64,000 nt of DNA from Circinella umbellata (taxonomy: Eukaryota; Mucoromycota; Mucoromycetes; Mucorales; Lichtheimiaceae): contig JAIWNF010000001.1 of assembly GCA_025093555.1 (NCBI GenBank), positions 124,001 through 188,000 of the forward strand, written 5' to 3'. Numbering within the stretch: the first letter of the stretch is position 1; each line of letters opens with the position of its first letter. Shown piece by piece: positions 1,335-47,765 of the stretch. The notes under the pieces are model-generated. The model was given only the letters and a program-made list of their open reading frames with translations. It made no database searches and had not been told where the DNA came from. The translations under genes were made by a program, and so were the position numbers.

Positions 1335-2030
1335 GTGTATTTCTAACTTTCTTTTTTATTTTTGTAAAGAAGTGTAACAACAAATGTATATTATTTTGCA
1401 CGGGGAACAAAATATTATATTATATTCGATAAGTATAACTTTATAATACCCACCAGATCAAGCTGGGTTTTTATACTTTTTAAGGAGGAAAGAGGTGGGT
1501 AGTACAATCCAAAAAAAAAAACGAGGTTCGGATGGAAATATATGTAGCCGACACAAAAACCTCTTTCATTTCATCTCCCCTTACCAACGTGTTTGTTTTT
1601 TATAGAGTCAGTCAGTCAGACCACGTTAGGGATAACAATAAGTCGTTGTGAAACTGACAGCTAATAATCATATTGTGGACTATTGATAATGACCCTTAAT
1701 AACTATTTATAACGTTTTTATCCATATTAACTCCCCCCCTATTTATGCTAGTAGAACAAAGTTATGATTTACTAACCGAATCAAATAAACCATATTATTT
1801 TACTACCAGAAACCAACAACAGACATATTTAAATACATAATATTTCATTTGTTCATGCCGTAAAAAAAAATACATAGAAAGCGTATCCAAACTTCTTTTT
1901 TTTCCCTCATTTATAAACATTGATTCCCAATATACAAAAGAAAAGATTTTACATCATTAAAAAAAAGTGGGATAATAAGAAAAAGAAAAAGTAAAAGAAA
2001 CACCCCAAAAAAAATGTATTTGTAATTTTT
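635..2030. other. Intergenic: 14-3-3 upstream region and RPS16 3' flank
   Basis: No coding exon is supported here. The part nearest 634 should hold the promoter and 5' leader of the 14-3-3 gene. The part nearest 2030 holds the 3' end of RPS16. The stretch is rich in A and T runs and contains a TA microsatellite. Predicted reading frames at about 761-1000 and 1177-1432 are low-complexity and look spurious. Confidence 0.6.
1300..1333. repeat. (TA)n microsatellite
   Basis: About 17 uninterrupted TA units in the spacer between the 14-3-3 gene and RPS16. It creates artificial Tyr-Ile reading frames. Likely length-polymorphic. Confidence 0.9.
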
Positions 2031-2953
2031 TTAACGGTAAGACTTTTGGAAACGTGCACGGGCACCTGGACCACCGAACTATAATAAAACAAAACAAGTT
2101 GAGGTTAAAAATCCCATTCCATTTCTTTAAAATAATAATAAATAAGAATCCTATTTACCTTCTTGGGTTCACAACGACGGGGATCGGCAACAAGAAGAGT
2201 ACGGTCATATTGAACAAGGATTTCCTTGATTTCCTTCTTGGAAGCTTCATCAACGTACTTTTGATAGAAAGCAACGATGGCCTTAGCAAGAGCTTGACGG
2301 ATAGCATAAACTTGCGAGACAACACCTATTTAATTATTTTCCCAATTTAAAATTAGTAACTATGCTACACCCCATCCCCCGCTCTTCTTATTAGTCCATA
2401 TATTTATATATATTGAAAGTAAATACATACCACCACCTTGGATACGGATACGGATGTCAACGTTAGCGAAACGTTCTTCACCGAGGAGAAGAATGACTTC
2501 GTAAACCTTGAACTTTAAAATGGCAGGTTCCAAGAGTTCAAGAGGAGAACCGTTGACGCGGATAAGACCACGTCCACGCTTGCAGTGTGCGACGGCAGTA
2601 GCAGTTTTCTAAAATTATAATATAATTTTGAAAGGATTTTTTTTTCGTCATTAATAAATTGTTGAATAATTTATTTATTTATTTTATTGAAAGGGTGTGT
2701 GATGTTGACCAAAAATAAATAAAAGAAAATTGAATCGTTTTTTGTCCATGTATAATAGTTGAATTTCGAAATGTTGGATGTAATAAATAATTAAATCGTA
2801 ATTATTTTTATATATTATCGTAATAGATTTTTTTTCCAATCGATCGATTAAATTTAATTATACATCCATCTATATACAGGATTGATTGATTCATTAAATG
2901 AATGGATTGATTAGTATACACACCTTGCGGCCGAAAGTTTGGACAGCTTCCAT
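2031..2953 (-). CDS. RPS16: 40S ribosomal protein uS9 (S16)
   Basis: Structural protein of the small ribosomal subunit near the decoding site. Four exons: 2953-2924, 2608-2431, 2325-2159, 2078-2031, giving 140 residues, the normal length for the family. Visible hallmarks are [15 protein letters not shown] near the start, [36 protein letters not shown], and the C-terminus [15 protein letters not shown] that reaches toward the P-site tRNA. Donors are GTGTGT, GTATGT and GTAAAT. The first intron is 315 nt, long for this window. The start was set at 2953 ([10 protein letters not shown]) by comparison with yeast S16. In-frame ATGs at 2998 and 2992 would add 15 or 13 residues and cannot be excluded. 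An inverted CCAAT box lies near 3035-3045. Confidence 0.95.
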
Positions 2954-3625
2954 GGTGTTCGAAAAGGAGGACTTGTATGGTTGCTTGGCCATCCATTGCA
3001 TGTATAAGTATATTGAAACGCCGATTAAAGAAGTCGATTTGATTGGCTATTCTATTGATGCATTGTTATAATTTTACCTTTTTTAAAAAAAAATACTTTT
3101 TATTGAAGACAAAGGTTCTATATCCAATATAAAAAAGATATCATTTGAAAACAAAAATCTAGTTAAGTATATATGGATAATGGGAATTCTTAAAGTCGAA
3201 CTGACGGTAGCAATTTCACCAGAATAAAGACAAGCTACACCACGTACGCATGTTTCTAGCCTATATTCTCTGAATATATATGAAGAAATTACATGCTTTT
3301 TTCCCCCTCATGATACCTGATTCTATCATTATTCTATACGCCAATAAGCATTATAAACTCAAAGAAAAGAAATAAGAAAAAAAAAACTAACAATACCCAC
3401 GGCCATGTCATATTTTTTACTATTACCCGTTCCCACTTTTTACCATGACAGTGTTATCTACGTAGTAACTTACTTGACGTTAGTATAGTAACGCGCACAT
3501 TCCATGATTTGTATACTAAAGTAAAAAACTTTTATTGAGGTGATATGTGGATACATTAAGTTTTATTCTAGTTTTTATTTTTATTTGATAGAACATACAG
3601 ACGATCCCCATTAATTTCATATCCG
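2954..3625. promoter_or_regulatory. RPS16 upstream region
   Basis: The sequence upstream of RPS16 (minus strand) contains GCCAATCA, a canonical CCAAT box, at about 3035-3045, some 85 bases before the chosen start codon. The rest (3100-3625) has no recognisable gene and no RNA gene I could identify. Confidence 0.45.
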
Positions 3626-3906
3626 TTAATTTTCACAGCTCAACAACTTCACAAAAAATGAACGAAAGGTAATAATAACATGCAAACGCTGCAGATTGTT
3701 AAAAGAAGCATTGAAGATCAGATCCCAATCTGACGAATTGCTCATGACATTATGCAGTTTGCTTTGATGTTCCATGGCACATGTTATTGATAATACTGGT
3801 ACGTTGTCACAGATTATACGAGTAAGATTACACGGTGTAAATATGAGGTGGGAAAGAAAAGGATCTGCGGTGCTTGCATGTAATTCTAAAGTTTTCAAAC
3901 TTGTAT

Positions 3907-3963
<57 letters not shown>

Positions 3964-5135
3964 CTGTTGTTGCTGCTGTTGCTGCTTTATTTTGTGAGTA
4001 TCTTCTTGGAATTTTGTCAGCAATAACAAGATGATCCAATTTAATTCGAGACGATTGTTCTATTGCCTTCACATGTGTCAAAGCACACGGGCTTACATAC
4101 ATGACCGAATGTTAGAGCAATTGTTGTATGAAATCTTGAATTCTCCGATTAGAATTTAATGATAAACGGATACTTGTAATGCTCCAGTGCTGGAGAGTAT
4201 TCGATAATCCATAAAAGTGATAATGAGGTTCGTGACCACCAATATATAGTGTTTGGAGATTGGGAAATACGTTTAATAACACTTCGAGAGGAACTGCATT
4301 AAAATAGCGGTACTGGATGCAACTTGTATCGGCAAATTGAGGGACAGCAATTAATAGAAGAAAATGGATAGGGCAAAAACCTTAGTACAGTATGAGAAAG
4401 TAATGGAGCCAACATGGTTATTGCAGAAAAATATATTAACTAAAATCACCCTTGCCTTCTTTTGAGATAAATGATGAAATATATTGTTCAATATTCTCAT
4501 CTCTAATTTCCAATTTCGGGCTTTACAGACAACTCGGTGGTATCGTTAATGTAATCCACGATCCCGATGCTTTTCATGATGATAAATGCTGCTTTGTCAT
4601 GATGATTGAGTTGAAAATGGAGCCATAACATATTATCATTTACTAATCGGTTATATAAGTCAGTGCAGACTAATGCTGCTGTCGCGAGTTGCTCGGATGA
4701 AAATGACGCAAAAACATCCAGGAAGATTTCTGCTGTTCATCAAGGAAGTCATTGAAGGACGTCATTTTTGTTTGACTATTGTCGATGTCGTTGCTGTTGC
4801 TGTTGCTTTTGACATGTTTCGGTCTCTGTTGTAGTGGTAGTGTTGTTTCAACTATATTGATACCAGAACTTTCTGACATGTTGTTGATGGAAACCAACAC
4901 CGCCTGTTGCTTCTTTTTCTTCTTTTCTTTCTTTTCCTTCTTTCTGAAAATCATCCTCTTTACATTTGCCTCTTCATACTTCGTCATTAATTCGTAAGCA
5001 ACTGATCCTCCCTCTTCGATGATTATTTTATTTATTTCACGATCAGGATGATGTTGGTGGTTGGGATGATCTGAAATCAGTTTGCGACTGCATTCTAGAC
5101 ACAGCATTTGGTCATTACTATCCACGTGAGCTGGT

Positions 5136-5173
<38 letters not shown>

Positions 5174-5562
5174 ATGGATTGATATCTCAACAGTAATTGA
5201 AGTCAGTACGAGAGGAATCCTTTCATTCAGATAATTGGTATATGCGGCTGGTTGAAACGACCACCGACTGGGAGTGAACGGTATTTCAAGGATTTTTTTG
5301 AGCATAATTTCTGACAGGCATGGCAGGGATCCTTGTTATTAATAAGTTGCAATTCGTCAGCAAGAGAAACTGCTGTCGACTTTGTAGTTGCTGCTGTTGT
5401 TGGTACAGTCGATGATTTTGAACCTGGTTCCGAAACAGTCAAAATGAGCTTTCTTTTATTTATGTTTGCATTCGCAATGGTAGAACCAGGATCTGACTCT
5501 TTTTTGATGGAATTATTGGTCATTTTTGGATTAAGCCCCTTTGCGTTTGATTTGTCATTCAT
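3626..5562 (-). pseudogene. Decayed F-box / leucine-rich-repeat-like gene
   Basis: Three collinear minus-strand pieces look like one broken gene. 5562-5227 gives a Ser/Thr-rich N-terminus with a CxxC-like patch (CHACQKLC). 5127-4670 continues in a second frame with CLECSRKL and a lysine-rich stretch. Between them an F-box core is readable in another frame (AEIFLDVFASFSSEQLATAA, then VCTDLYNRLVNDNMLWLHF), preceded by the expected Leu-Pro but with two TGA stops at 4742-4737. Farther on, LRR-like segments (LLNVFPNLQTLYIGG; LDHLVIADK; LKTLELHA; NLQRLHVI) run into a TAA at 4114-4112. A (TAG)n tract encodes polythreonine in the LRR part. F-box proteins are SCF ubiquitin-ligase adaptors; this copy appears non-functional. 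Unrecognised introns or assembly errors are the alternative explanation. Confidence 0.55.
3905..3962. repeat. (TAG)n trinucleotide repeat
   Basis: About 19 TAG units, flanked by degenerate TTG/CTG units. On the minus strand it encodes polythreonine inside the decayed F-box gene. The plus-strand poly-valine frame is an artefact of the repeat. Confidence 0.9.
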
Positions 5563-5639
5563 GGTTGGATAGTGAAAGTGTCGAAAAAAAAGAAAAAGAA
5601 AACACGCAGCTCTGGCTAAAAAATCACCTTTGCTGATGA

Positions 5640-6340
5640 AGACTAAACATTAGTTTGCAGTTGCCAAGGCTAGTACAGGCTTATTGATTTTAATTCGTAA
5701 AAAGTTGAATAGCACTTTTGAAGAGTTGTTGGGGGAATTGGAAGAAGAGGATGAATCACCCTCTGAAGAACAACTTAGGAAGTATTCAATAGACGTGAAG
5801 GACTGAGTTTATACCTAGATAAAGATAAAAAGAGGTAATATGTAATAAAAGCCAGTTCGTCCAATAAGTGTAATTTGATAATGTGCCTGTACCAGTTGGA
5901 AATATTGTTATTTAATGAAGGACGTACATTTGAAAGTATTCAAACTCGTTTGAGACCGGAAAAAATTCATCAATGGTACGAAAAAAGAAAATTGTGTGTC
6001 TGCGTGCACAGATAATAATGTACGTACGTATGATCTATTTTATATCCCATTTTGATCCTTATTATCTTGAGTTCGTATAAAGATTATATACTATATAGTG
6101 TGACTGATGTATAGGTACGGTAAAACAGCCATTGGATTCAATGATTGCTCGCGTTACCGATCTACTATCTAGACTTGCATTTACCCCACCATGTATTCTA
6201 TTGTTAAATATTGCCCGATCCCATATTGAAATTAAACAATATAGGTTTCTTGGCCTTAGTGCTCCAAAAAAAAAGGAATTGATTTATTTATTAACTGTAG
6301 AACTTACATTTTTTAGTATCATTACTTATTCAGTTTAAAC
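5640..6340 (+). other. Unrecognised coding-like fragments
   Basis: Short plus-strand stretches look protein-like but could not be joined. About 5690-5805 reads STFEELLGELEEEDESPSEE, an acidic segment. About 5880-6020 reads LLFNEGRTFESIQTRLRPEK followed by IHQWYEKRKL. About 6115-6290 reads VKQPLDSMIARVTDLLSRLA followed by a hydrophobic run. Stops interrupt the frames between them and splice sites are not convincing. They may be exons of a small gene or remains of a lost one. No family was recognised. Confidence 0.2.
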
Positions 6341-43290: not shown

Positions 43291-43299
43291 GTATAACAC
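43291..43299. repeat. Left 9-bp target-site duplication (GTATAACAC)
   Basis: GTATAACAC lies immediately outside the left inverted repeat and is repeated exactly at 47757-47765, outside the right one. A 9-bp duplication is typical of Mutator-like elements. Confidence 0.9.
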
Positions 43300-43335
43300 G
43301 GGTGCGATTTTTTTCAGGTGAAATTGAGGATTCAT
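43300..43335 (+). repeat. Left terminal inverted repeat
   Basis: Starts GGGTGCGATTTTTTTCAGGT and continues TGAAATTGAGGATT. Against the reverse complement of the right end it matches at about 30 of 35 positions, with small indels in the T run and near GAGG. Confidence 0.9.
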
Positions 43336-43481
43336 GCTTTTCAATCGCCGCTTAATTTGAAAAGAATAAACAGTCCGCACAGAGGAAAAACAGTCATTCT
43401 TTTGCAGTGACAATATATCTAAAAATAATAGGATATCTACTTTGTTCATCATAGCATTTGTTCTTTTTAATACACAACAGA

Positions 43482-46400
43482 ATGTCTTTTCCACAATTTC
43501 CAAACGGTGATCAAGTCTATACTATTCCCCTTCATTACAAAGAAGGCGAGAATAACGAACGTAATCAGCTCGTATATGATTTATTTGTTGGGTGGCAGCT
43601 TCATCAAGTCAGCGATGACAAAGGAAAGCATGGGGTTCATACCTTTTACAGAAGATGTTTGGGTGCTGTCATCTGTACCAATTGCAATACTTTGTTCAGA
43701 CCAAAATCATCGAACAAACGTATTAATGAACAAGTTACGAAGCATTGTACTAGCTGTATGATTACTTCTACGTTTTACATTGGAAAATTGAAAGGTAATG
43801 TCTATATAAAATTCTGGGTACTGAAATTAGAATGGAGTATCATTGGGATATACATACTTTGGAGTGATGTATATAGCTTAGATATGTTAATGCTTAGTTG
43901 AATGGAGCAAGAGAATAGTTTTGCCTGAAAGCAAGCACGTTTGCTAACCCTATTACTGATCATTACAGATGGTGTAATGGTAGGTGAGATGAAACACCGG
44001 GGTACACATACTCATGGTGAATTTATTCCGTTACATTTCACCATGGAAACGTTGGACAAAGTAGAGGAACGTGTGTTGGAATTTCCAGGCGAGAAGTCGT
44101 ATGCATTAAAGATTGGTACTAGTGCTATCCGTGTGCAGAAGCCTTCCAGACCAATTAGCAACATCGACAAGAATCTTCGTAATATTGGTACTATCAAGAG
44201 ACTTCGACGCAATTACCTTATGAAAAACGATCAATTGACATCGACACAGGCATCATTTGAGACAATTCATTCAGAATTTAAGGAGTTGCAAAAAGAGTTT
44301 CCTGGCTATATAAAGGCATCGAATATCGTCCCTAGCCCAATGTGCATTACATTTGGTGCTCCTGGTATTATGTATCATGCTGATTTCAAAACAAATCCTA
44401 TGTTGACTGATGTCACATACAGCTGCTTCACGAAAGATTATTATTTATGTACTACTAACATTTATTTTGAAGCGTTAGACAAGTTTGCTGTTGTATTTCA
44501 AGGAGTGCTTGATGGACTTTCTAAGGATGACTTCAAGGCGTACTTCTTGTCTTTTTTCACGTCGTTTGATTTTCTGTTTGGATCTTCCGATGTTGATATT
44601 GACATGAATTTCTCTGGACTGGTATGTTTTATTTTTCACGGTTGGTACATTTAGATGTTGTGTTGGTGCATGAATGATAGAGAGGCAGTGTTTATATTAT
44701 GGAAAACTTGTCATATATGCATATATTATATAAGAATTAGAATAGTAGCATATCATGTAAAGCAGTCGCTATTTTACAGATGTAGATAGATAGAAAAGAC
44801 TAGATATGTCGAAGATATATAGTTATAGTTTGACAAATTTATCTTTACAATAAATAAAATGACAACTTGTTTATAAATTGGATACTGTTTAATTGGATGT
44901 GATATTTTTTTAACTATATACTGTTGTGAGAGACTAAATTGTGAACAATTTATCTTAGGTTATGGATTATTCTCAAGCACAACGCCAAGGTTTTATCATG
45001 GCATTTGAAGACAAATTCCCTAATAGTAACATTGCTCCGCAAACTTTGTTAAAAGGATGTTATTATCATTGGAAACAAAGCATCCAGCGAATTATCAGCA
45101 ACCATGCCATTGTACCACCAGGTTGTGATGTTGATTTCATCGACTATACCGATCAAATGTACAATGCTGCAGGAGAAAAATCATACAACTGGGCTGTTCA
45201 ACAGATCCACAAAGATTATCCTAACGCAAAAAAATGGCTTGATTGGTGGACCCGCGATGAAATTGCCGGTATGATATTTAAATCGAAGGGATGGCTCAAG
45301 GATGAGCTACAAAACCATCCTTGCCGGACATCGAATGGAGTAGAAGCACTCCATAGAGACCTCTACCGTATCGTTGAAAAAAAGAAACCGCTCATAGAAA
45401 CATTACACCAGATTTTTTCTTATTTGCGTTCCTCAGAATTGGATTTGGAGTTTGTTGACGCTGGTGGTAGAGTTGATTACAACCGAAAGAAAACAGGGTA
45501 TATAGTTATTTAGCAGTGTTCAAGTGCCAATATATATTATATACATGTCAGCCATTTATTTTTATATTATTATAATAGAAAGCAACGTCAGGTGAAGAGG
45601 TTCTTCAATGATGGCCGTGCTCCCGACACGACAAAAACTTTACTGGATCACGGTAATGTATATTATCTATTATAGTATATGAATACTCACACAGTTATAT
45701 GTGCATAATTGTATAAGATCAAATGGTTTGTGCGCTAATAATTAAATTGATCTAATTAATACAGGCTTTAAGAGTAATGGTGGAAGAAAAAAGAAGATGG
45801 ACAATGAAGGAGAAGAAAATAATAAAAGTAAAAGTAAAGATACACAGAAGATGAAGATAGAAGACGAGAACGAAAAGAAGAAAGAAGATGCGAAATCAAA
45901 GAAAGTAGAAGAGAGGAAAGCAAAGAAGGTAGAAGAGAGGAAAGCAAAGAAGGTAGAAGAGGAGAAAGCAAAGACGAACGCAGCAGAAGAACGGAAAAGA
46001 CGTGCAGAAAAACATGCGGAACGTATTAAAGAAAACAAGAAGAGGACCAAACAAGAGTCGAAGAAGAGAAAGTTGAATGATAGCAGTAATTTTGCTAGGT
46101 GAGAAAAGGATGGTGAATGATAGGATACATGTAGTTTACAATGATGCTAACTATTCTAAATTATAACCATTAGGGAAATGGATAACGCTCAGATGTTTAG
46201 ACGTTTAGGCCTTGATGTTATTTCTTCAGATATCCTTATTGGTTGTCAATTGAATGCCGAAGATGTGTTAGGACTCTCCAATCCTAAAGGAGATGGCCAT
46301 TGTGGTTGGAGAGCTAGTGCTGTTCTTCTTTACGGCAGCGAAGACCAGTATGAAATTGTGAAGATGATAATGAAACATACTCTTTTGAACCACAAGGAAC

Positions 46401-46843
46401 ATTATGAACGTATGTTTAGAAAAGATGGATATGAAAATAGACTGGCGATTCTTTCGCATACAGGTCGAAGTGCAAGTCCAAGGCTTTGGTTTGATGCGTT
46501 GGACTGTCCTAGGATACTTGCAGAAGCATATAACCGACCTGTCGTTCTATATATGGTTTCATATGATCCCAATATAAAAGATAAATCGTTTAATGGGGTA
46601 ACATTCTTGCCTCTCTTTTCTGAGTGTCCACACAGTGATAGCAATGATAAAGACATGGGCACTTCTGCTCCAATAGTTTTATTTTTGAATGGCAATCATT
46701 TCCAATCGATTGTGATCAAAGACGAAGCTATAAATCGAGTTATTTGGCCCGATATTTTTCCTGGACATGAGAATTTCGTTACAAAGCATGGCCTTACTAC
46801 ATCATGGTTAGATTTCTATCGGCCTAGATGTTTGAAATTTTAA
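43482..46843 (+). CDS. MULE transposase fused to a C-terminal OTU cysteine protease domain
   Basis: Six exons (43482-43794, 43969-44621, 44959-45497, 45579-45652, 45765-46098, 46174-46843) encode 860 residues. Residues 55-122 form a WRKY/GCM1-like zinc DNA-binding domain (C65-x2-C68, C89-x2-C92, H118-x-H120). The MULE catalytic core follows: MLTDVTY (first Asp), VMDYSQAQ (Asp325), the C-x2-H signature GCYYHWKQ, and SNGVEALHRD (Glu about 451). A 100-residue lysine/glutamate-rich helix links to an OTU domain: GDGHCGWRAS with nucleophile Cys about 681 and NGNHFQSI with His about 813. OTU enzymes are mostly deubiquitinases. Here the domain may protect the transposase or act on host ubiquitin; the substrate is inferred. 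Introns have normal splice sites, and one carries a GCTAAC branch point. Confidence 0.9.
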
Positions 46844-47189
46844 ATTCCTGCGAAACTTTTTATATATTTTTCTAGACATTATCCCTCTTATTTTATTATC
46901 TACTTAGACTTATATTTATCCTTTTTTATATAGACATACATTTATTCTTTTCTTATAAACACACAATCTCTCTTTTTTATAACATAGATTAACGAAGGCC
47001 AAGAAAGTGCCAATGAAACAGATAAGTATATTGGTTTATATATTTATGTTTATTCCAAATGTGGAGAGATACGTCCCTGTGTGTTATTATGTGTCTATCA
47101 CATCATATAACTAGAAATACCAATAAAAAGGCTATGTTATCGTTGAGTATTTATTAATCGCGATATTATTATGCTTAGTGAGCAGTAAA

Positions 47190-47505
47190 AAAAACGACTA
47201 AATGCTTTTTTATGCAAAAAATCCCAAAATAAAAAAAAAATATATAAAAAAACGACTAAGTGCTTTTTATGCAAAAAACACACAATAAAAAAAAATATAA
47301 AAAAACGACTAAGTGCTTTTTATGCAAAAAACACACAATAAAAAAAAAATATAAAAAAACGACTAAGTGCTTTTTATGCAAAAAACACACAATAAAAAAA
47401 AAATATAAAAAAACGACTAAGTGCTTTTTTATGCAAAAAACACACAATAAAAAAATATATAAAAAAACGACTAAGTGCTTTTTTATGCAAAAAATCCCAA
47501 AATAA
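47190..47505 (+). repeat. Six-copy tandem repeat, about 54-bp unit, inside the MULE
   Basis: Units start CGACTAAGTGCTTTTTATGC at about 47194, 47253, 47306, 47360, 47414 and 47468, separated by A-rich spacers with CACACAAT or TCCCAAAAT. Copies differ mainly in A-run length. They lie between the gene and the right inverted repeat, where subterminal transposase-binding sites would be expected. The reading frames across them are artefacts. Confidence 0.9.
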
Positions 47506-47514
47506 CAGATCACA

Positions 47515-47640
47515 TAAAAAAACCACATAAAAAAAACCACATAAAAAAAACCACATAAAAAACCACATAAAAAAACCACATAAAAAAAATCACATAAAAA
47601 AAAAATCACATAAAAAAAATCACATAAAAAAATCATTTTT
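47515..47640 (+). repeat. Short A-rich tandem repeat (CACATAAAAAA units)
   Basis: About ten copies of a 12-14 bp unit (CCACATAAAAAA, then TCACATAAAAAA). The motif CACATAAAAAA recurs at about 47692 and 47715, next to the right inverted repeat. It is part of the element's right subterminal region. Confidence 0.85.
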
Positions 47641-47721
47641 ATAATACAAATATACAAGCGGAGATTGAGTTTAAAATGTTTTGTGGCAAATCACATAAAA
47701 AATATGTGGCTAGGCACATAA

Positions 47722-47756
47722 AAAATCCAAATTTCACCTGAAAAAACACGGCACCC
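47722..47756 (-). repeat. Right terminal inverted repeat
   Basis: Read inward on the minus strand it begins GGGTGCCGTGTTTTTTCAGG and continues TGAAATTTGGATT, matching the left end. Confidence 0.9.
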
Positions 47757-47765
47757 GTATAACAC
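47757..47765. repeat. Right 9-bp target-site duplication (GTATAACAC)
   Basis: Exact copy of the nine bases at 43291-43299. Confidence 0.9.

What the first reader, a model, noticed from the sequence alone, without database searches (positions are those of the whole stretch)
43291..47765. Complete MULE with a transposase-OTU protease fusion, defined to the base by 9-bp target duplications
Both ends are visible: GTATAACAC on each side, inverted repeats GGGTGC...GCACCC, and one 860-codon six-exon gene with intact DDE, zinc-finger and OTU catalytic residues. MULEs carrying a captured Ulp1-type SUMO protease are known in plants, and OTU domains are known from Helentrons. A fungal Mutator-like element with an OTU domain on the same polypeptide as the transposase is much less familiar to me and suggests convergent capture of ubiquitin-system proteases by transposons.
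Basis: partly seen in the sequence, partly recalled or inferred. Interest (0 to 1): 0.88.

Follow-up and report, generated by a model that had tools for sequence, protein, structure and literature searches.

The report
Jumping gene with fused deubiquitinase
This is a recently mobile fungal DNA transposon whose cutting enzyme carries a probable ubiquitin-removing protease on the same protein; relatives in the same genome carry an unrelated protease of the same kind instead, which suggests the element needs the activity rather than that particular protein fold.

Summary
The element is real: 43300-47756 (4457 bp), perfect 9-bp duplications (GTATAACAC), ~27-bp inverted repeats, an 860-codon six-exon frame. 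The host genome (Circinella umbellata, Mucorales) holds eight uninterrupted near-identical copies; six have different perfect 9-bp duplications, one an 8-bp one; all eight frames are open. The transposase belongs to MuDRF, a GCM-domain branch of the Mutator superfamily already in print for basidiomycetes and Naegleria (PMC3164196). One claim fails: the zinc finger of this copy is not intact. It and one other copy lack 11 residues, with a His/Cys pair of the finger, present in the other six. The C-terminal OTU domain is confirmed by profile (OTUD5, E 3.5e-8), keeps its D/C/H residues and shows dN/dS as low as the transposase in one sister pair. Beyond the finding: of 52 OTU matches in this genome, 17 follow ordinary PF10551 MULE transposases and 24 follow GCM-type ones; other recently mobile MuDRF elements carry a USP/UCH-like deubiquitinase instead; OTU-tailed transposases are not one clade (p-AU 3e-69). 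A ubiquitin-protease tail is thus a recurrent, exchangeable module of these transposons, comparable to the OTU/Ulp1 alternation in Ginger1. New variant of a known kind; function is inferred.

The parts
43291..43299 (.). left 9-bp target-site duplication GTATAACAC
47757..47765 (.). right 9-bp target-site duplication GTATAACAC
43300..47756 (+). complete MuDRF-OTU element, 4457 bp
   Evidence: terminal sequences found at both ends of the 8 uninterrupted copies
43300..43325 (+). left terminal inverted repeat
47730..47756 (-). right terminal inverted repeat
43482..43794 (+). exon 1 (start codon; N-terminal GCM zinc-binding region)
   Evidence: GCM assignment by relatives
43769..43770 (+). junction of the in-frame 33-bp deletion that removes a His/Cys pair of the GCM finger; shared with L002, absent from the other six copies
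43969..44621 (+). exon 2 (end of GCM region with H118-x-H120; D252 of DDE at 44409-44411)
44959..45497 (+). exon 3 (D325 at 44965-44967; C356xxH359; E451 at 45343-45345)
45579..45652 (+). exon 4 (conserved NDGRAPDTT motif)
45765..46098 (+). exon 5, charged linker with a 24-bp in-frame repeat (45853-45974); one copy (L007) has one unit more
46174..46843 (+). exon 6, OTU cysteine-protease domain (D678 46292-46294, C681 46301-46303, H813 46697-46699) and stop
47188..47494 (+). 54-bp minisatellite, 5.6 copies, in the 3' non-coding part
47511..47632 (+). 14-bp minisatellite (CACATAAAAAAAAC) near the right end

Best explanation
The region is a recently mobile cut-and-paste DNA transposon of the MuDRF branch of the Mutator superfamily in Circinella umbellata. 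SHOWN from sequence: one six-exon gene model encodes, in order, a GCM-type zinc-binding domain, an IS256/Mutator-like DDE transposase, a charged linker and an OTU domain; the element ends in ~27-bp inverted repeats and duplicates 9 bp on insertion; eight near-identical copies and short derivatives with the same ends exist. INFERRED from known families: the GCM domain binds the ends, the DDE core cuts and joins with a 9-bp stagger, and the OTU domain cleaves ubiquitin. INFERRED, most likely role (about 45%): the deubiquitinase acts in cis, removing ubiquitin from the transposase or the end-bound complex and so protecting it from degradation; next (about 35%): it acts on histones or repair factors at the excision or insertion site. 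The window copy lacks part of the GCM finger, so it was probably moved, or is now movable only, with transposase from other copies. The confidence given is for the identity of the element and its fusion, not for the role of the protease.
Against: The window protein itself matches no Pfam family at E<=1 and its OTU exon reaches PF02338 only at E 0.12. ISCth4 and Hermes (hAT) are tied within 1 Z unit. No RNA data; splice sites are predicted. No enzyme activity was tested. The dN/dS pair is small (dS 0.03-0.07) and one member carries stop codons. No empty site was found in this genome.
Confidence: 0.85

Rival explanations
1. The OTU domain is a captured passenger with no role in transposition, carried along because it lies between the ends.
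For: No activity data; OTU sequences diverge more than the transposase (proportion of nonsynonymous differences 0.31 vs 0.19, window vs C203).
Against: dN/dS of the OTU as low as that of the transposase between C203 and C137 copies; catalytic motif kept in old subfamilies (D in 14 of 15 OTU rows, though rows were cut around that motif; D, G and C invariant in the 7 rows of A3); another deubiquitinase-like domain in the same place in related elements is not expected of a passenger.
Confidence: 0.1
2. The protease acts on host chromatin or repair proteins (for example ubiquitinated histones) at the donor or target site rather than on the transposase.
For: A role through DNA repair was proposed for Ginger1 OTU/Ulp1 domains (PMC2836005 passages). 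Fusion to the transposase would place the enzyme at the break.
Against: No substrate known; none of the calls bears on the substrate.
Confidence: 0.35
3. The transposase is not Mutator-like but hAT- or KDZ-like.
For: Hermes (hAT) is tied with ISCth4 in both VIA tables; no PF10551 match.
Against: Only ISCth4 and GCM chains pass E 0.001 in Foldseek; the only transposase models weakly matched are Mutator/IS256; 9-bp duplications in 6 of 8 copies; homologous to the Puccinia GCM-DDE protein P0008, of a kind assigned to MuDR in print.
Confidence: 0.06
4. Transposase and OTU are separate neighbouring genes inside one element.
For: Introns separate the exons; no RNA data.
Against: In-frame splice phases in 8 of 8 copies; predicted proteins of another species span both; same-frame fusion in USP-tailed relatives.
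Confidence: 0.05

Closest known systems
MuDRF elements (Puccinia striiformis genome paper, PMC3164196; passages seen)
   Same: GCM DNA-binding domain and DDE transposase in one protein; 9-bp target duplications; Mutator superfamily.
   Different: The words OTU, USP, Ulp1 and protease do not occur in its main text; reported from basidiomycetes and Naegleria, here Mucorales.
Ginger1 transposons (PMC2836005; passages seen)
   Same: C-terminal OTU or Ulp1 protease on a DDE transposase, alternating between families.
   Different: Gypsy-integrase-like transposase, another superfamily; the alternative tail is Ulp1, not USP.
Ulp1-bearing Mutator elements (plants, hydra, lancelet; cited in PMC2836005)
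   Same: Mutator transposon with a ubiquitin-like-protein protease.
   Different: SUMO-protease family, not OTU or USP.
Transposase_11 plus peptidase C19 protein of Trichomonas vaginalis (cited in PMC2836005)
   Same: Transposase fused to a USP-type (C19) domain, as in the USP-tailed MuDRF relatives here.
   Different: IS5-like transposase (Transposase_11), another superfamily.
OTU-bearing Helentrons of animals and certain fungi (PMC6431247, one passage seen)
   Same: Transposon protein with an OTU-like cysteine protease, also in fungi.
   Different: Rep/helicase rolling-circle transposon, no DDE transposase.
MULE-Mucorales group (PMC6446971, Table 1 passage)
   Same: Mutator elements of Mucorales with a SWIM finger; L048, a PF10551 MULE followed by OTU here, has a SWIM-like motif by eye.
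   Different: Table lists 10-bp duplications and 'other motifs: -'; no OTU noted.

Membership tests
MuDRF branch of Mutator | GCM zinc-binding domain N-terminal to the transposase | tested here: met
MuDRF branch of Mutator | DDE transposase in the same protein, related to the Puccinia GCM-DDE proteins | tested here: met
   P0008 (Puccinia graminis) found directly at E 2.4e-28; D252, D325, E451 the same in 10 of 10 rows.
MuDRF branch of Mutator | 9-bp target-site duplication | tested here: met
   6 of 8 uninterrupted copies perfect 9 bp, all different; 1 of 8 8 bp; 1 of 8 unlike flanks.
MuDRF branch of Mutator | similarity to the Repbase MuDRF reference sequences | not testable with these tools
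   Repbase not held.
Mutator superfamily (MULE/IS256) | RNase H core with helical insertion closest to IS256 | tested here: inconclusive
   ISCth4 is the only transposase passing E 0.001 in Foldseek, but Hermes is tied in VIA Z.
PF10551 MULE transposase family | match to the Pfam profile | tested here: not met
   No Pfam family at E<=1 for the window protein; the window element is not among the 77 PF10551 matches in this genome.
OTU cysteine proteases | profile similarity to known OTU domains | tested here: met
   A3 to OTUD5 E 3.5e-8, VCPIP1 5.2e-6; single-sequence Pfam OTU only E 0.12.
OTU cysteine proteases | catalytic Asp/Cys and His | tested here: met
   D678, C681 and H813 in the window; D, G, C invariant in 7 of 7 rows of A3 and the N-H present in the 6 rows that reach it. 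That these residues are catalytic in OTUs is recalled.
OTU cysteine proteases | deubiquitinase activity | not testable with these tools
   bench assay needed
Ginger1 | Gypsy-integrase-type transposase with GPY/F motif and H2C2 finger | not tested
   not looked for; the best matches are ISCth4 and GCM
USP/UCH deubiquitinases (tails of related elements, not of the window element) | match to Pfam UCH | tested here: met
   L056 E 1.8e-5, 24.9 bits, over the 23.9 cut-off; three others below it; 4 of 8 rows match at E<=1. But profile A9 found no PDB chain, an earlier profile A4 reached Ubp6 only at 0.0035, and the fold of this part had low confidence.

The most novel reading that the evidence does not exclude
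In Mucorales, a ubiquitin-protease tail is a required but interchangeable part of Mutator-superfamily transposases: MuDRF elements have switched between OTU and USP folds at least twice, have exchanged OTU cassettes with ordinary PF10551 MULEs, and are kept mobile by selection for deubiquitination as such. The ubiquitin system would then be a general control point of transposition in these fungi.
Probability: 0.5. Interest if true: 0.75.

Novelty: new variant of a known kind. Interest (0 to 1): 0.6.

Why it matters
Proteases of the ubiquitin system have been noted on transposons of several superfamilies (PMC2836005 passages), with their role only proposed. Here one fungal genome offers young, near-identical, open-frame copies of related transposons that differ in the protease type (OTU or USP-like), and a natural copy with a damaged DNA-binding domain. 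That makes the question of why transposons carry deubiquitinases directly testable in one system.

Tried and rejected
Single-sequence Pfam scans gave nothing for the window protein and NCBIfam little for four relatives. A profile of eight USP-like tails found no PDB chain at E<=1, although single members match Pfam UCH. The fold of P0021 had pLDDT under 50 from residue 739 on, so the USP claim rests on sequence only; no USP chain is among the 50 rows shown for that model. The empty site of the window copy was sought in its own genome and not found. dN/dS among the eight young copies is uninformative (at most 1 synonymous and 3 nonsynonymous changes against the window copy). Comparisons of the window copy with other subfamilies are near or beyond synonymous saturation, and one of them (core2) was run in a wrong frame for the window row and is not used. 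OTU tree: holding the GCM-type OTUs together is not rejected (p-AU 0.065), so exchange of cassettes is suggested, not shown; the grouping of L041 with MULE OTUs survived three leave-out runs, but the tool warns of long branches. Host OTU genes (L061, L062) were too fragmentary for that tree, and the fetched MULE-side OTUs L047, L065 and L068, whose frames are broken, were left out of it. The 21-row transposase tree held 5 unlabelled rows and a long-branch Puccinia row labelled USP on motif alone; the 15-row tree leaves those 6 out, and its groups are tail types, named from the sequences. L002 was not counted as an independent insertion: it shares its right flank with L006 but not its left, which may be recombination or assembly. 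Literature: ten searches, six of which showed only the top 10-20 of longer lists; I saw no listed paper that describes an OTU domain in a Mutator transposase. Passages only were read of PMC2836005, PMC3164196, PMC6446971, PMC12730594, PMC6431247, PMC6875170 and PMC6207730 (the last two use the words in other senses); the search inside PMC13359780 returned no passage. Repbase and most subscription journals were not searched; a 2006 survey of WRKY-GCM1 fingers is recalled, not read.
Full report
OBSERVATION. The element lies at 43300-47756, between perfect copies of GTATAACAC. The ends form an imperfect ~27-bp inverted repeat, with 17 bp perfect. Six exons with GT..AG borders give 860 codons. A search of the host genome (50.8 Mb, 210 contigs) with the element gives at least 73 matches (40 of 67 candidates scored); eight copies are uninterrupted with both ends, and further ones are interrupted or partial (for example L038, both ends, 6963 bp with an insert, flanks alike at 7 of 9 bases). 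Against the window copy the seven others have 3 to 6 mismatches over about 4.4 kb outside gaps; all eight frames are open (860, 871 or 879 codons) and all splice dinucleotides are kept. Duplications: L001 GTATAACAC, L003 AAAAGTGGG, L004 GTGGGATTT, L006 GATCACCAG, L007 AAAATAAAT, L008 ATATTAAAG (perfect 9 bp); L005 TTTTATAC (8 bp); L002 unlike flanks. Of five short derivatives with a left and a right end, L026 (510 bp) and L033 (623 bp) have a perfect 9-bp duplication; L027, L030 and L031 have unlike flanks.

A CORRECTION. The window copy and L002 lack 33 bp present in the other six copies. The missing 11 residues (TLKHVPCDCRI) contain the H-x2-C of the zinc-binding domain. In the P0006-GCM1 alignment the corresponding Cys is matched by a Cys of mouse GCM1. 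That it is a zinc ligand in GCM1 is recalled, not read here. L002 also has C68R. The zinc finger of the window copy is therefore not intact, while its DDE and OTU residues are.

HOST. P0016, a Circinella umbellata protein, maps to G000:C193: the identities amount to 195 of 196 and 188 of 189 residues once introns are allowed for, and its contig length (143414) equals that of C193. Circinella is Mucorales, Lichtheimiaceae.

OTU DOMAIN. A profile of seven OTU rows hits OTUD5 at 3.5e-8, then a chain named RNA-dependent RNA polymerase (6dx5, 9.9e-7; a viral OTU by recall), VCPIP1 and OTUD7B. D, G and C of D-G-x-C are invariant in those seven rows. In a larger set of 15 rows, cut around that motif and so no independent test, one row has G for D; a nearby N-H, H-H or N-N-H motif was found by pattern in 12 of 15. 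Between the C203 and C137 copies dN/dS is 0.12 for OTU and 0.17 and 0.08 for two transposase parts; C137 has one stop in each of OTU and core2. Pairs with the decayed C28 copy give 0.44-0.46 for OTU and 0.43-0.56 for core1. The C203 copy is itself a complete element with the 9-bp duplication CCTAGACTT.

BEYOND THE FINDING. The OTU exon finds 52 places in the genome. Of these matches, which are matches and not elements, 24 lie within 4 kb downstream on the same strand of a GCM-type transposase match and 17 of a PF10551 MULE match; 11 have neither. The chance expectation for MULE is about 0.003 per match (87 of 97 transposase matches used). Other GCM-type transposases carry a different tail with N-x-C-[YF]-I-D and G-x-H-F boxes. 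The tails of L056, L059, L055 and L054 match Pfam UCH at 1.8e-5 (over the cut-off), 2.3e-4, 0.0022 and 0.0034 (the last three below it); those of L043, L044, L046, L057, P0007, P0008 and P0021 are assigned by alignment or motif only. Two copies of one such element (L049, 4714 bp; L050, 4703 bp; L050 contains L044) are 99.7% identical in the main aligned block and have different perfect 9-bp duplications, ATTAATTAC and AATAAGTAC. On the 15-row transposase tree the OTU-tailed rows are not one clade (log-likelihood 125 lower if held together, p-AU 3e-69; three changes, at least two forced by strongly supported branches). L041, OTU-tailed, sits among USP-tailed transposases, and its OTU is closest to those of MULE loci (34% and E about 5e-42 to L066, against 29% and 4e-18 to the window), with support 95/94, and 98/95, 99/98, 99/98 in leave-out runs; the formal test is short of rejection (p 0.065).

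HOW IT PROBABLY WORKS. GCM binds the ends; the DDE core excises and inserts with a 9-bp stagger; the tail removes ubiquitin near the complex. Two different protease families that share that chemistry make the activity, not the fold, the likely target of selection. Protection of the transposase is my first choice (45%), action on chromatin or repair second (35%); no substrate is known. The window copy has perfect ends and duplication but a damaged finger, so supply of transposase in trans by other copies is likely. All of this paragraph is inference.

NOVELTY. OTU or Ulp1 tails on Ginger1, Ulp1 on Mutator, OTU on Helitrons/Helentrons and C19 on a Trichomonas transposase are in print (PMC2836005 and PMC6431247 passages). 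OTU on MuDRF and on PF10551 MULEs, and USP as its alternative, were not found in the searches listed under Tried and rejected. I rate it a new variant of a known kind.

Noticed in passing
L048 (G000:C171), L063, L064, L066, L067 and 12 further places: PF10551 MULE transposases followed 1.4-1.8 kb downstream by an OTU domain on the same strand: a second transposon type with OTU tails in this genome.
   Followed up: partly
L049 1060-5773; L050 (reverse complement) 1636-6338: Recently mobile GCM-DDE elements with a USP/UCH-like tail and perfect 9-bp duplications; related tails in L043, L046, L054-L059 and P0021.
   Followed up: partly
L002 and L006: Two copies share the right flank but not the left; L002 lies near a contig end. 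Recombination between copies or an assembly join.
   Followed up: partly
L026 546-1055; L033 615-1237: Short non-autonomous derivatives with the same ends and perfect 9-bp duplications, CTTTGCTTG and ACATTCTTT.
   Followed up: partly
L036-L037 (G000:C164:29000-43500): A decayed MuDRF-OTU copy lies about 0.9 kb from an oppositely oriented MULE-OTU locus: a possible place for exchange of OTU cassettes.
   Followed up: no
P0008 (Puccinia graminis PGTG_08030): The GCM-DDE protein of Puccinia has a long C-terminal part with a USP-like Cys box; seen by motif only.
   Followed up: no
window 47188-47494 and 47511-47632: Two minisatellites in the 3' non-coding part of the element; whether they explain the length differences between copies was not measured.
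   Followed up: no
P0006, P0024 (proteins from metagenomic sources without organism name): P0006 scores above the Pfam GCM cut-off (30.4 vs 25 bits) and P0024 just below it (23.8); transposon GCM domains bear on the origin of animal GCM transcription factors.
   Followed up: no
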